DNA from: Bacteroidales bacterium
GTDB lineage: Bacteria > Bacteroidota > Bacteroidia > Bacteroidales > JAADJA01
Assembly (NCBI GenBank): GCA_016933115.1
Contig: JAFGBL010000232.1
Coordinates: 1-59,124, forward strand
Length of the DNA stretch: 59,124 nucleotides
Direction of reading: 5' to 3'
A program made the position numbers and the translations under genes. The notes under the pieces were generated by a model, which searched no databases, was not told the DNA's origin, and saw nothing but the letters and a program-made list of their open reading frames with translations. Shown in pieces: positions 22,414 to 30,412 of this stretch; positions within the stretch are counted from its first letter, which is position 1; every line of letters begins with the position of its first letter.

Positions 22414-23037
22414 CTATTTTATTAATGTCAGACCTTCTTTGGCCGAATAATCGTTGGGGCGATTCATCAGAACCTTGTTAAATAAAACTTCCGCCTCCCT
22501 GAATTTACCCAATTTAAGGTTGGTCCAGCCATACATCAGCAAACCGTCATAATCGAACGGGTACAGGTTGACGACTTTTTCGAAGTATTTCAAGGCAGTG
22601 GTGTAATCTTCATTCCCATAATAAATTGATCCGAGCCTGTAGTTGGCCAGTGAGTTTTGCGGATCGATCTTCAGGATTTCCAGGTATTGGTTTTTCACCT
22701 GCTCCCAGTTACCCAGCGCCGATGCAGGATAAACATACCCGAATTTGGCTTCGATGGACAGTGGCATCAGGTCCATGGCTTTTTGGTAATAGGCTGTTGA
22801 TTCGGTGAAAAACCCGGCCATATAGGTGAGCCATCCCAGGCGCAGGTTGATCTCATAGGAATCATCCATGTAAACACTTTTCATTGCATCGATGGCTTTT
22901 GAATAATCGCCACTGTAATCGTACAGGTAACTTTTTTCAAATGCATCCTGAATGGTCTTGTAATCCTGAGATTGAGAAGCAAAGGACAGTAATATTCCAA
23001 AAAATCCGATTGCAAAAATGCGTTTTAGAATTTCCAT
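22414..23037 (-). CDS. Tetratricopeptide-repeat protein, last gene of operon
   Basis: Signal peptide and several TPR units (YYQKAMDLMPLSIEAKFGYVY, ALKYFEKVVNLYPFDYDGLLMYG); start overlaps preceding stop by 13 nt. Confidence 0.85.
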   Translation of the reverse strand: MEILKRIFAIGFFGILLSFASQSQDYKTIQDAFEKSYLYDYSGDYSKAIDAMKSVYMDDSYEINLRLGWLTYMAGFFTESTAYYQKAMDLMPLSIEAKFGYVYPASALGNWEQVKNQYLEILKIDPQNSLANYRLGSIYYGNEDYTTALKYFEKVVNLYPFDYDGLLMYGWTNLKLGKFREAEVLFNKVLMNRPNDYSAKEGLTLIK

Positions 23038-24422
23038 TTTAAACCTCCTAAAATTGTTTGATTGTTATATTTAAAATTTCCGATCAATGGATTCGTATCA
23101 TCCATGTACCAAACTTCAAATCCTTCCATTTGATGATATTGAAATCGCAAAGATAATTCAACTTTTTCCCAAATGGGCATGATAAAATTTAATCCGGCCC
23201 TGAAACGGGTCCTGTCTCCTGAGTTATGGACCACAAATACATTTTTTTCGGTCAGGTTAATATATTCACCCAATGCCACAAACCCTTCCAGCCAAATCCG
23301 TTGTGATAATTTTACCCCGGCCAGTTGTTCGAAAATAAAATGGGATTTATTGTCATCGTTTAGCCAGGTGCCTGTTGATGTTGTATAAACATCCAGGTTT
23401 CCTTTCGGGAAATAAGTGATTTCACCGCCGGCCTGGTACTGGTCAATGCTGTTCAAATTGGAAATTGAACCAAAAATACCTGCATTGAACATGGTGAAAT
23501 TTTTATTGAGAGCCAAAGAAGCGGCATAATTGAAAAATGAAGTATCGGTTTCGATAATATCAAAAACAGGCCCGCTGAAATCAATAACTTCTGCCCGGAA
23601 ATTTTTAGAGCTTACATATAAAATATTGACTGCCGGAACCAGCGTTAAACCATTTTTCAATGCCCAATTCATATTGGCATAAACCGAATGTTGGTAAAGG
23701 TTATAGGGATTGTCATAACTATTGATCCGCTGATTTCCTGATGACGATGTATTATCGGGAACCAGTATTTGGTGGAGTTTTGAAATAATAAGGCCCGAAT
23801 AACCAATATATAAGGAAAGCTTTGAACCCACATTTAATGAACTGCCCAAATGCAAATAATATCGGTCACCGTTCAGATCGCGTTCATAATATGAAGATCC
23901 TTCCTTGATTCTTCTCCCTTTGTTTGCAGAAAAATTATCGCTGAATGTATAACCTGTTTCAAGGTATAAGTGATTAAAAACTTTAGCTTTAGGTATATCC
24001 AATTTCTTTTCCAACAGTCCGGCTTCATTCGATAATAAAACTTTAAGTTCACCTGACCGATTGGAATAAAGATAACAATAATAAAGATATTCAGCAGTTA
24101 CAGGATCATTGGCATTGAATTGCCGGGCTTTTTCAAAATATTGGGCTGATCTCCTATAATTTTTTTTGTTGAACCAGGCAAATCCCATCCGCTGCCTCAG
24201 GTAAAAATAATCCACTCCTTCACGAATGGCCTCCTTCCCAAGGATGATAAGGGAATCCCAGTTTTTTTGCAAATAAAACTTATTGGTTTCCCTGTCGACT
24301 TCCTTAAAATTCAATTCCTGGGTTTGTGAAACAGCCGGGTTAAAAGCCATGATGATCAGAATAATCAAAAGCCGGGAATACCTCTTTGATTCAATAGCCT
24401 TGTATTTATTTTGAATCTTCAT
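23025..24422 (-). CDS. TPR plus predicted outer-membrane beta-barrel protein
   Basis: N-terminal TPR-like region, then long amphipathic alternating strands ending in ...TILGGLKWKF, terminal aromatic as in OM barrels; 4-nt overlap with preceding gene. Confidence 0.7.
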   Translation of the reverse strand: MKIQNKYKAIESKRYSRLLIILIIMAFNPAVSQTQELNFKEVDRETNKFYLQKNWDSLIILGKEAIREGVDYFYLRQRMGFAWFNKKNYRRSAQYFEKARQFNANDPVTAEYLYYCYLYSNRSGELKVLLSNEAGLLEKKLDIPKAKVFNHLYLETGYTFSDNFSANKGRRIKEGSSYYERDLNGDRYYLHLGSSLNVGSKLSLYIGYSGLIISKLHQILVPDNTSSSGNQRINSYDNPYNLYQHSVYANMNWALKNGLTLVPAVNILYVSSKNFRAEVIDFSGPVFDIIETDTSFFNYAASLALNKNFTMFNAGIFGSISNLNSIDQYQAGGEITYFPKGNLDVYTTSTGTWLNDDNKSHFIFEQLAGVKLSQRIWLEGFVALGEYINLTEKNVFVVHNSGDRTRFRAGLNFIMPIWEKVELSLRFQYHQMEGFEVWYMDDTNPLIGNFKYNNQTILGGLKWKF

Positions 24423-26650
24423 AATTGTTCAGCTTCATCTGATTCCGGATTCGATACTTCGTGTGCTTCAATGCTGCGATTCCCGTAGATACAAACAAAA
24501 CGTTTTATTCTTTTGGATTCTACTTCAAACTCAAAGTTTAATTCCTTCGTGACTTTATTGCCATTTTTAACGGAAGCATTCGAAATAAAATGGATATGGC
24601 TGTCGGTAAGGTCATCCCGGAGCTTAATGAATTCAAGGGTAAATTCGGTTTTCAGGAAAATATAAAACGGGGCTATAAAATCCTGAATGAATATAAGTCC
24701 TTTACTATTCAACAGGTGGATTGGAAAAGTATCGGTAATTTTCAACCCTTTATAAAACCCAAGGGAAATTTTATAGGCCCCGACATAAAAATAAAACAAC
24801 AATGAATTTTTGTTGCCTTCAAAGTGGGTAAAATAAAAGAGGTTGCCTTCATTTTTTAACCAGGCTTTTGATTTGGTGCGCTTACAAAACAGGAAGGGGT
24901 TGTTGTATATATCTGTCCTTACCTCCCACGAAACCGTCCACTGGTTCTGATCTGAATCATTTACCCGGAAATGGATCATTTGTCCGGGTACAAAATGAAA
25001 TGCACCATGAAGGTTCGGATTTTTTTCGATGTTGGAAATTACATCTTCTTTTTCGGGCCTGCCGTATGTTTTGAACTCGAAATCATCCTCATTCCGGAGA
25101 ATGTAATGGGCAATCGGGTAATCCAGGGTTTTGGACCCGATAAACGGCGTTTCCTGCAATTGAAAATGCAAATGCGGTTCGGGTGATCTGCCTGAGTTGC
25201 CACAATGCGCCAGCACATCTCCCCTTTTAACAAAATCACCCTTTTTAACTTTGAATGTTTCCTTTTTCAGGTGGCTGAGTTTGGAATACAACTTTTCCGA
25301 ATGCCTGACGATGATCGTATTTCCCCAGTTCTGTTCAAGGTTGGAATCACCGATTTCATTGTCGTCGATTCCATCGGCGATCTCCTCCACCCATCCATCG
25401 GCAGGGCAAATAACCGGTTTGTTATAACAATAATAATCCTCCTTGCTGTTTCCGCTTTTTTTGAAATTCGAACCATTGTCATCCGTAATCTCAAAATCCC
25501 AGGCATGTGCCCAGTCTTCCCGGTGCGTAAACTTGCCATGATGCGCCTGTGTTACCGTCCATTCGCCCCAGAAAGGCAAAGCTACCGGGATAAACTTGAA
25601 TTGAGAAAACCTCCGCTGGTTATTGAGGTGTGCATACAGGTTTTTCTCAGGCGAAAATTGCTGGTAAACGACTATTTCCGGTTTGTCGTAGGATCGATCC
25701 CTGAACTTCAGGATATACAGGAAAAGTAATACAACAACATTAAACGGTAATGAATAAATAGAAAGCTGAAACAAATTCAGGACCGCTATAGAGCTGGTGA
25801 TCGTGATAGAAATTAACGGTGTGAGCAGAATGACCCATAAAAATGAGTACCGCGACGGAATGATGAAAAATCCGCCGATGGCTATTGATGTTAAAATAAA
25901 ATTAAAGCCGATATAACTATAGCTGAGTTCATAAATATTTCCTCCTACAAACTTGTAAAATAAATATGCCGAAAAGAATCCAACCAAAGAAAGTAAAAAA
26001 GCCTGCCGGGAATAGATCAATACCCCGATAGCGATGATAATTCCGGCAAACAAATGGTATTGAAAGAAAATGGCTCCCAGCGAACGGAAATAGATCACAA
26101 TGGATTCATGCAGGCGAATGTGCGAAAACCAGTCATAAAAATTTACAAGTAAATACCCACCGATCCCAAAAAGTTCATTGGTAACAAACATCCCCCTTTC
26201 GCTAATACTCAGTGCTGTAAATTCACGTGAGGCCAGGGTTACCATCCAAATCCCAAATAAGAAGGAAATACTCAGGTAGGGCAATCCGTACTTTCCGATG
26301 ACGCCTTCCATCACCACCGTAAAAAACAAGGTAAAAATGGAAGCAAACAATAAAATGAGTAAAAACTCAACGTGCATCTGATAATAAATCCCCAGGCCAA
26401 GCCCGACCAGTAAGGAATTAAATCCATAATACCCCGATTTGATATTAAACCGGTTAAAACCGATGAGGCTGGCAATTCCATTTGAGATGATCACGGCCAG
26501 CAGCCCGCTGAAACCGGCATTGCGGTCGAAAAAAGTAACGATGATCAGGATGACGGCAAAAATCCGGTTGTTCGAGAAAAACACCTGCGTATAGCTATTC
26601 AACAGGCCGGATAAAAAATCGGGAAATATTTTTTTCAGTGATTGCTGCAT
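24419..26650 (-). CDS. Urea-transporter-like membrane domain fused to M23 peptidase domain
   Basis: UT-like repeats (KSGYYGFNSLLVGLGLGIYY and YSYIGFNFILTSIAIGGFF) followed by M23 motifs (WAHAWDFEI, IIVRHSEKLYSKLSHL, PHLHFQLQ). Confidence 0.85.
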   Translation of the reverse strand: MQQSLKKIFPDFLSGLLNSYTQVFFSNNRIFAVILIIVTFFDRNAGFSGLLAVIISNGIASLIGFNRFNIKSGYYGFNSLLVGLGLGIYYQMHVEFLLILLFASIFTLFFTVVMEGVIGKYGLPYLSISFLFGIWMVTLASREFTALSISERGMFVTNELFGIGGYLLVNFYDWFSHIRLHESIVIYFRSLGAIFFQYHLFAGIIIAIGVLIYSRQAFLLSLVGFFSAYLFYKFVGGNIYELSYSYIGFNFILTSIAIGGFFIIPSRYSFLWVILLTPLISITITSSIAVLNLFQLSIYSLPFNVVVLLFLYILKFRDRSYDKPEIVVYQQFSPEKNLYAHLNNQRRFSQFKFIPVALPFWGEWTVTQAHHGKFTHREDWAHAWDFEITDDNGSNFKKSGNSKEDYYCYNKPVICPADGWVEEIADGIDDNEIGDSNLEQNWGNTIIVRHSEKLYSKLSHLKKETFKVKKGDFVKRGDVLAHCGNSGRSPEPHLHFQLQETPFIGSKTLDYPIAHYILRNEDDFEFKTYGRPEKEDVISNIEKNPNLHGAFHFVPGQMIHFRVNDSDQNQWTVSWEVRTDIYNNPFLFCKRTKSKAWLKNEGNLFYFTHFEGNKNSLLFYFYVGAYKISLGFYKGLKITDTFPIHLLNSKGLIFIQDFIAPFYIFLKTEFTLEFIKLRDDLTDSHIHFISNASVKNGNKVTKELNFEFEVESKRIKRFVCIYGNRSIEAHEVSNPESDEAEQL

Positions 26651-30315: not shown

Positions 30316-30381
30316 TATAAATATTTAACTTGTTAGATATGATAAACTACAAATGGTTTAATACCGATCTTTTAAAGTGTG

Positions 30382-30412
30382 CAAATTTATCAGATTAGCG
30401 GGAAATTACAAA
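30382..30412 (-). promoter_or_regulatory. Putative promoter of the pqqD-like operon
   Basis: Reverse strand TTTG (30412-30409), 19-nt spacer, TAAATTTG (30389-30382), exact TAnnTTTG; about 60 nt upstream of the PqqD ATG. Confidence 0.65.

What the first reader, a model, noticed from the sequence alone, without database searches (positions are those of the whole stretch)
22414..30412. Seven-gene PqqD / ATP-grasp / PLP decarboxylase / IF2B-like / UT-M23 / barrel / TPR operon: candidate undescribed biosynthesis-and-export system
Seen: seven minus-strand genes in transcription order PqqD-like, ATP-grasp, DAP-decarboxylase-like, eIF-2B-like, urea-transporter-M23 fusion, TPR-barrel, TPR, with junctions of -17, +36, +21, +49, -4 and -13 nt. 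Known: PqqD/RRE domains bind peptides or carriers for modifying enzymes; ATP-grasp enzymes form amide or peptide bonds; fold-III enzymes decarboxylate amino acids; IF2B-like isomerases act on sugar phosphates; M23 enzymes cut peptides or peptidoglycan. Inference: a cytoplasmic module makes a modified amino acid, amine or peptide conjugate, and an envelope module (inner-membrane channel/peptidase, OM barrel, TPR) processes or moves it. I know of no named pathway with this gene set.
Basis: partly seen in the sequence, partly recalled or inferred. Interest (0 to 1): 0.88.

Follow-up and report, generated by a model that had tools for sequence, protein, structure and literature searches.

The report
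Leader-tagged decarboxylase operon of Bacteroidota
A block of six genes, kept in the same order in hundreds of Bacteroidota genomes but with no known product, appears to make and move an unknown amide or amine, and its small peptide-binding protein seems to grip a leader-like tag on the pathway's own decarboxylase instead of a separate peptide.

Summary
The seven ORFs and all six junctions are exactly as described. Comparison of about 150 Bacteroidota loci shows a real conserved unit of six genes: PqqD-like, ATP-grasp, fold-III PLP decarboxylase, UT-M23 fusion, outer-membrane barrel, TPR. The IF2B-like gene is an occasional passenger in a variable slot and has lost the isomerase cysteine. No paper in the open-access library describes the set.

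New result: the decarboxylase carries a conserved N-terminal tail, predicted disordered, with the motif YxxPxI, the leader motif gripped by lasso-type RiPP recognition elements (RREs). The operon's PqqD protein is closest in the PDB to exactly those RREs and keeps their contact residues (N27, D64, F68). Tail residue 6 and PqqD residue 64 covary: tail Tyr goes with Asp/Asn/His (139/139), tail Phe with Tyr/Ser/Ala/His (46/46). Tree-based simulations rarely or never reproduce this (4/3000; 0/3000 with a post-hoc coding). No separate precursor peptide was found.

Best reading: an RRE-organised cytosolic ligase-decarboxylase assembly making a decarboxylated amide, coupled to a urea-channel-fold protein whose M23 domain probably faces the cytosol, and to an outer-membrane TPR/barrel pair. 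Docking is well supported; product, direction of transport and M23 role are inferred.

The parts
30055..30315 (-). PqqD-like discrete RRE (86 aa), core gene 1
   Evidence: Pfam PF05402; best PDB relatives TbiB1, TfuB1, PbaB1, LppB; N27 185/185, D64 124/185, F68 181/185
29028..30071 (-). ATP-grasp ligase (CarB/PRK12767-like), core gene 2; overlaps the RRE gene by 17 nt
   Evidence: ATP-grasp residues K166, E267, E280, N282, R284 invariant in 21 relatives
27630..28991 (-). Fold-III PLP decarboxylase, core gene 3; best match FslC (N-citrylornithine decarboxylase)
   Evidence: PLP lysine K83, C372, E304-x-G306-R307 invariant; model pLDDT 85
28923..28991 (-). Leader-like N-terminal tail of the decarboxylase, residues 1-23 (MEKQRYERPVIKKLETNMPNKFG): motif Y6xxP9xI11, then K21-F22-G23
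   Evidence: P9 in 215 and K21 in 216 of 217 relatives; pLDDT below 50 for residues 1-23; outside the stretch matched by LysA, FslC and BtrK structures
26700..27608 (-). IF2B-like gene, accessory passenger in the variable slot between decarboxylase and UT-M23
   Evidence: found in few loci; HSNS in place of the catalytic HC motif
24419..26650 (-). UT-M23 fusion, core gene 4: urea-transporter fold (residues about 1-315) + M23 zinc-peptidase domain (about 355-510) + C-terminal beta domain (about 510-735)
   Evidence: model pLDDT 88; Foldseek to dvUT/UT-B and M23 peptidases; H376, D385, H460, H493, H495 invariant
23025..24422 (-). TPR + outer-membrane beta-barrel protein, core gene 5
   Evidence: Conserved position in the Bacteroidia-type loci; TPR region at profile positions 63-136; barrel inferred
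22414..23037 (-). Periplasmic TPR protein, core gene 6
   Evidence: TPR families; conserved in nearly all complete loci

Best explanation
The locus is a conserved six-gene biosynthesis-and-transport system organised by an RRE. Supported by the data: the PqqD-like RRE binds the YxxPxI tail of the decarboxylase, as lasso-peptide RREs bind precursor leaders. Inferred: the RRE, translationally coupled to the ATP-grasp ligase, thereby brings ligase and decarboxylase together. The ligase joins an amino acid to an acceptor through an amide, and the decarboxylase removes the alpha-carboxylate of that amide-linked amino acid, as FslC and BtrK do, giving a neutral amide or amine. A UT-fold channel with a cytosol-facing M23 hydrolase domain trims or releases the product and lets it cross the inner membrane. 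A periplasmic TPR protein and an outer-membrane barrel pass it on, most likely outward. IF2B is not part of the core.
For: Co-conservation: strict order and orientation in the great majority of 40 + 80 loci. 62 of 63 genomes with a full UT-M23 match also have the decarboxylase, including genomes where the two halves lie on different contigs, e.g. G388 C105 against C103. RRE docking: tail motif in all but truncated members; tail disordered in the model; RRE closest to YxxP-binding RREs of known structure; contact residues match LppB N33/D70/F74; covariation of tail 6 with RRE 64 top of 4332 pairs, exceptionless in 185 pairs, rarely or never reached in tree simulations. Chemistry: FslC is the best decarboxylase match, sharing C-M where DAP decarboxylases have C-E; catalytic residues intact in ligase, decarboxylase and M23. 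Topology: UT fold with basic N-terminus and C-terminal juxtamembrane segment.
Against: No substrate, product or phenotype is known. RRE-tail binding was not measured or modelled as a complex. Most Phe-tail rows belong to a few clades: only 4 strongly supported independent pairs, about 3 in agreement and none opposed, too few for the sign test; the 0/3000 result uses a class (Asp/Asn) chosen after seeing the data. UT pores pass urea-sized molecules, which sits badly with a large conjugate. A cytosolic M23 enzyme would be unusual. In a few genomes (L250, L266) no RRE or ligase lies next to the decarboxylase. Export rather than import is not shown.
Confidence: 0.58

Rival explanations
1. The decarboxylase's tail is itself the substrate (a cis-acting precursor or carrier). 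The RRE presents the tail to the ATP-grasp enzyme, which loads an amino acid on invariant Lys21. The decarboxylase domain then acts on this swinging arm, and the M23 domain releases the product.
For: K21 in 216/217 and G23 in 213/217 relatives lie just after the RRE-binding motif in a disordered tail; in LppA the residues after the motif do not touch the RRE and were suggested to serve modifying enzymes. BtrK, a relative, acts on a carrier-bound substrate (name of the chain). No separate precursor or carrier was found. M23 site intact.
Against: K21-F22-G23 could simply be a docking or structural element; no evidence of modification; turnover of one attached substrate per enzyme would need rapid release.
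Confidence: 0.22
2. The system makes a metal-binding small molecule (a carboxylate or amide metallophore); ligase and decarboxylase assemble it, and UT/barrel export or recapture it.
For: Closest decarboxylase is from rhizoferrin synthesis; an HMA-AraC regulator with a CxxC-type motif lies directly upstream in 24 of 148 long loci. From memory, vibrioferrin synthesis also pairs an ATP-grasp with a DapDC-like decarboxylase.
Against: No NIS synthetase, TonB receptor or ABC importer recurs beside the block; the regulator is absent from most loci and from the window; its HMA match is below Pfam's cut-off.
Confidence: 0.1
3. The block is an uptake and degradation system: barrel and TPR import a peptide or amide, UT admits it, and M23, decarboxylase and ligase process it inside.
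For: M23 hydrolase predicted on the cytosolic side of a passive channel; transporter and enzymes are co-conserved.
Against: An ATP-grasp ligase and an RRE are biosynthetic parts; no TonB-dependent receptor or extracellular hydrolase recurs.
Confidence: 0.08
4. The tail is an ordinary N-terminal extension and its match to RRE leaders is coincidence; the covariation reflects shared ancestry.
For: Few independent changes on supported branches.
Against: Three RRE contact positions match, no Phe-Asp or Tyr-Tyr combination in 185 pairs, and neutral tree simulations rarely or never reach the observed coincidence.
Confidence: 0.07

Closest known systems
Discrete lasso-peptide and LPP RREs (TbiB1, TfuB1/FusB1, PbaB1, LppB) with [Y/W]xxPx[LVIFA] leaders (PMC13381572)
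   Same: Same RRE family by profile, same leader motif, same contact residues
   Different: The motif sits on the N-terminus of a 453-aa PLP decarboxylase; no precursor peptide, no B2 peptidase or cyclase
FslC, N-citrylornithine decarboxylase of rhizoferrin synthesis (PDB 7kh2)
   Same: Best match of the decarboxylase fold; C-M at the specificity position
   Different: 240.7 bits against a cut-off of 500; no NIS synthetase; the tail lies outside the matched stretch
BtrK, gamma-glutamyl-carrier decarboxylase of butirosin synthesis (PDB 7ru7, 2j66)
   Same: Fold-III decarboxylase acting on a side-chain-linked amino acid; from memory it works with an ATP-grasp ligase
   Different: Carrier is an acyl carrier protein; none is present here
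LysW amino-group carrier pathways (from memory)
   Same: ATP-grasp links an amino acid to a carrier protein, a metallopeptidase later releases it
   Different: No LysW-like carrier; different ligase and peptidase families
dvUT / UT-B urea channels (PDB 3me1, 3k3g, 4ezc)
   Same: Whole UT fold (TM-score to target about 0.8), both LPxxSLPF signatures
   Different: Fused to M23 and a further beta domain; about 20% identity; no urease or urea pathway in the block
Synthase-dependent polymer export (PgaA, BcsC; from memory)
   Same: TPR plus outer-membrane barrel
   Different: No glycosyltransferase synthase; barrel not related in sequence to a solved one (one search matches are TPRs only)

Membership tests
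RiPP biosynthetic pathway | RRE with conserved leader-binding residues | tested here: met
   N27 185/185, F68 181/185, D64 124/185 with covarying replacements
RiPP biosynthetic pathway | Gene for a short precursor peptide with leader and core | tested here: not met
   No recurrent small ORF with the motif in 40 loci; the motif is on the decarboxylase instead
Lasso peptide pathway | B2 transglutaminase-like peptidase and asparagine-synthetase-like cyclase | tested here: not met
   Neither is in the operon; no other gene recurs beside it in more than a minority of 148 loci
Graspetides | RimK-like ATP-grasp acting on a precursor core peptide | tested here: not met
   Ligase is CarB/PRK12767-like; no precursor
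N-citrylornithine decarboxylase FslC | Score above the curated cut-off | tested here: not met
   240.7 bits against 500
Diaminopimelate decarboxylase LysA | Score above cut-off and acidic residue after the catalytic Cys (C-E) | tested here: not met
   219.2 against 297.9 bits; C372-M373 invariant
Fold-III PLP decarboxylases | PLP lysine, catalytic Cys, ExGR motif | tested here: met
   K83, C372, E304, G306, R307 invariant
Urea transporter (SLC14/UT) | UT fold with two signature motifs | tested here: met
   Pfam E 4e-51, fold match, LPxxSLPF twice
Urea transporter (SLC14/UT) | Conducts urea | not testable with these tools
   Needs a transport assay
M23 peptidases | Zinc ligands and catalytic histidines | tested here: met
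   H376, D385, H460, H493, H495 invariant in 22 relatives
M23 peptidases | Extracytoplasmic location | tested here: inconclusive
   UT topology and charges predict the cytosolic side; no experiment
Ribose-1,5-bisphosphate / MTR-1-P isomerase (IF2B-like gene) | Catalytic cysteine | tested here: not met
   H118-S119-N120 invariant in all 20 aligned relatives; wild-type isomerase 5yfj has HCHS

The most novel reading that the evidence does not exclude
An enzyme that carries its own leader: the RRE guides the ATP-grasp ligase to the decarboxylase's N-terminal tail, where invariant Lys21 is loaded and serves as a swinging arm for the same enzyme's active site, with release by a cytosolic M23 domain coupled directly to a membrane channel. 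This would be a carrier-in-cis logic outside both RiPPs and carrier-protein pathways.
Probability: 0.22. Interest if true: 0.93.

Novelty: new variant of a known kind. Interest (0 to 1): 0.78.

Why it matters
RREs are thought of as the hallmark of ribosomal peptide natural products. Here one appears to have been re-used to dock on a full-size metabolic enzyme, which would widen what an RRE signals in genome mining and explain PqqD genes that lack a precursor peptide. The operon is common (decarboxylase in 156 of 395 genomes of the window's order) and present in culturable Hymenobacter and Mucilaginibacter, so a major unknown metabolite of Bacteroidota may be within reach. The prediction can be tested with one small protein and one synthetic peptide.

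Tried and rejected
Separate YxxP precursor peptide: none recurrent in 40 loci. IF2B as a core enzyme: rejected by distribution and by the lost cysteine. Other genes in the slot between decarboxylase and UT-M23 as pathway members: they are unrelated to each other (sigma factor, PIN-like, restriction-type, aminotransferase, surface proteins, names from reading the sequences). The T9SS-tail papain-like gene upstream as a member: only in close relatives. Viral carriage: no viral contig was found to encode the fusion. Literature: no paper in the held open-access library joins these parts; subscription journals are not held, so a description there cannot be excluded. Strict independent-pairs test of the covariation: underpowered, hence the tree simulation. 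Loss of the tail where the RRE gene is missing: not seen; nearly all such loci were just cut off at contig or stretch ends.
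Full report
Observation. All seven ORFs are present at the stated places and the six junctions (-17, +36, +21, +49, -4, -13) are exact. The one ORF without a family above its cut-off is the barrel; its outer-membrane nature is inferred from its signal-like start, its C-terminal aromatic ending and its weak matches.

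The unit is six genes. Forty stretches from diverse Bacteroidota and 80 named loci from GTDB representatives show the order PqqD - ATP-grasp - decarboxylase - UT-M23 - barrel - TPR on one strand, again and again, while the flanking genes change. In a deep-branching set (L078-L090) the barrel does not lie between UT-M23 and TPR; a separate ORF of about 277 aa follows TPR instead, and two of twelve candidates match the barrel profile. So the parts are kept even when rearranged. In the order sample, 62 of 63 genomes with a full UT-M23 match also have the decarboxylase; the exception, G412, has its UT-M23 at a contig start and may not have been sampled in the second search. The only genome with the decarboxylase and no full UT-M23 match, G321, has a UT-M23 fragment at a contig end. 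In several genomes (for example G388, G325, G356) the two halves lie on different contigs yet both are present, which argues for a functional tie beyond linkage.

IF2B is a passenger. It is found in the window, in L065/L113 (the same place), L105, L116 and L144, and as a fragment in L064, always between decarboxylase and UT-M23. The same slot holds unrelated genes elsewhere. All aligned relatives read H-S-N where the isomerase 5yfj has H-C-H; the aspartate of the GAD motif is kept. Isomerisation by the known cysteine mechanism is therefore unlikely.

The leader-like tail. The decarboxylase aligns with FslC, LysA and BtrK structures only from about residue 29 on. Before that lies a tail with K3, Y/F6, E7, R8, P9, I11 and K21-F22-G23 almost invariant: P9 in 215 and K21 in 216 of 217 relatives. 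AlphaFold2 gives residues 1-23 a pLDDT below 50, whereas most of the enzyme scores above 80. Conserved but disordered is the signature of a docking peptide. The motif YERPVI fits [Y/W]xxPx[LVIFA], the leader motif bound by discrete lasso RREs (PMC13381572). The other decarboxylase-like gene of the same genome (L002) has no such motif.

Its partner. A profile of the operon's PqqD proteins finds, in the PDB, TbiB1, TfuB1, PbaB1 and LppB first, all RREs solved or studied with such leaders. In LppB, N33 holds the kink at the leader proline, D70 hydrogen-bonds the leader tyrosine, and F74 divides the pockets; PbaB1 has G42, Q79 and F83 there, and G42N/Q79D makes PbaB1 accept tyrosine leaders. By the alignment these positions are N27, D64 and F68 of the operon's RRE: N27 is invariant (185/185) and F68 nearly so (181/185).

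Covariation. RRE residue 64 is the predicted partner of tail residue 6. Among 185 RRE-decarboxylase pairs, tail Tyr goes with Asp (124), Asn (13) or His (2); tail Phe goes with Tyr (30), Ser (13), Ala (2) or His (1). Phe-Asp and Tyr-Tyr never occur. In the first 87 pairs this was the top of 4332 position pairs by corrected mutual information. Relatedness weakens this: parsimony gives 8 tail changes, and only 4 independent pairs rest on strongly supported branches (about 3 agree, none oppose; not significant by itself). Simulating the RRE trait along the tree, coincident changes as frequent as observed arise in 4 of 3000 runs for the coding fixed beforehand (Asp against other), and in 0 of 3000 for Asp/Asn against other, a coding chosen after looking (7 of 8 changes coincide). 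I take docking as about 85% likely; it was not measured.

Enzymes. ATP-grasp residues (K166, E267, E280, N282) and decarboxylase residues (K83, C372, E304-G306-R307) are invariant. The decarboxylase has C-M at the position where LysA has C-E, as FslC does. From established knowledge of these enzymes, that glutamate reads the distal amine of diaminopimelate, so a substrate with a masked or absent distal amine is likely (inference). The nearest ligases are carbamoyl-phosphate-synthase-like proteins, mostly of unknown substrate.

Membrane part. The UT domain models well (pLDDT 88) and superposes on dvUT and UT-B (TM about 0.8 to the target). Basic residues cluster at the N-terminus and right after the last helix (2.7 K+R in 12 residues), and most of the other loops have few. 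With the known topology of UT proteins (both ends cytosolic; from memory) this puts the M23 domain in the cytosol. Its zinc and catalytic residues are invariant. A cytosolic M23 hydrolase tied to a channel suggests release or trimming of a product at the pore, but a UT pore admits only urea-sized neutral molecules, so either the released product is small or the channel has changed. Direction of transport is inferred from the biosynthetic enzymes, not shown.

Distribution and hosts. The 80 best GTDB loci are Bacteroidota or close relatives by title, with a few odd titles (Alphaproteobacteria L138, Clostridia L142, Marinimicrobia L151 and L160); of these L138, L151 and L160 fall inside the Bacteroidota tree, so wrong titles or transfer are likely. 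Other phyla were not searched exhaustively. The protein of L077 is identical to one of Hymenobacter aquaticus, and Mucilaginibacter species encode the fusion. It is annotated there merely as 'urea transporter' or hypothetical.

Known or new. No paper in the held library combines these parts. The system works like an RRE-guided pathway, but it is not a RiPP pathway by the tests made, because no precursor peptide exists apart from the enzyme-borne tail. I therefore call it a new variant of a known kind, with the carrier-in-cis reading as the more radical possibility that the evidence does not exclude.

Noticed in passing
L110:5522-6124 and 28 other loci, directly or nearly upstream of PqqD: An HMA-like (CxxC) domain fused to an AraC-type regulator sits next to the operon in 29 of 148 long loci (24 directly upstream); possible metal-responsive control. 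The only match in the window's own genome is a weak one elsewhere.
   Followed up: partly
L126, L131, L132, L138 upstream: In about 8 loci the operon follows a 175-aa gene, mrdA (PBP2) and rodA on the same strand, a hint of a cell-wall or growth link in that lineage.
   Followed up: no
window 30395-34201: Large secreted protein with a T9SS sorting domain and a papain-like N-terminal half (the latter by eye), directly upstream of the operon; conserved there only in close relatives (L062, L064, L104, L105).
   Followed up: partly
L089 (G005:C1:2246021-2248212): UT-M23 broken by stops, with barrel and TPR displaced about 6 kb downstream: a decaying or rearranged copy of the system.
   Followed up: no
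L062 and L212 (genome G365, same genus as the window): Two copies of UT-M23 and of the decarboxylase in one genome, on different contigs.
   Followed up: no
L145, L156, L169, L179, slot between decarboxylase and UT-M23: A sigma-factor-like gene of about 190 aa recurs in the variable slot.
   Followed up: no
UT-M23 residues about 510-735 (window about 24440-25120): A C-terminal all-beta domain modelled with good confidence but with no Pfam family; its role is unknown.
   Followed up: no
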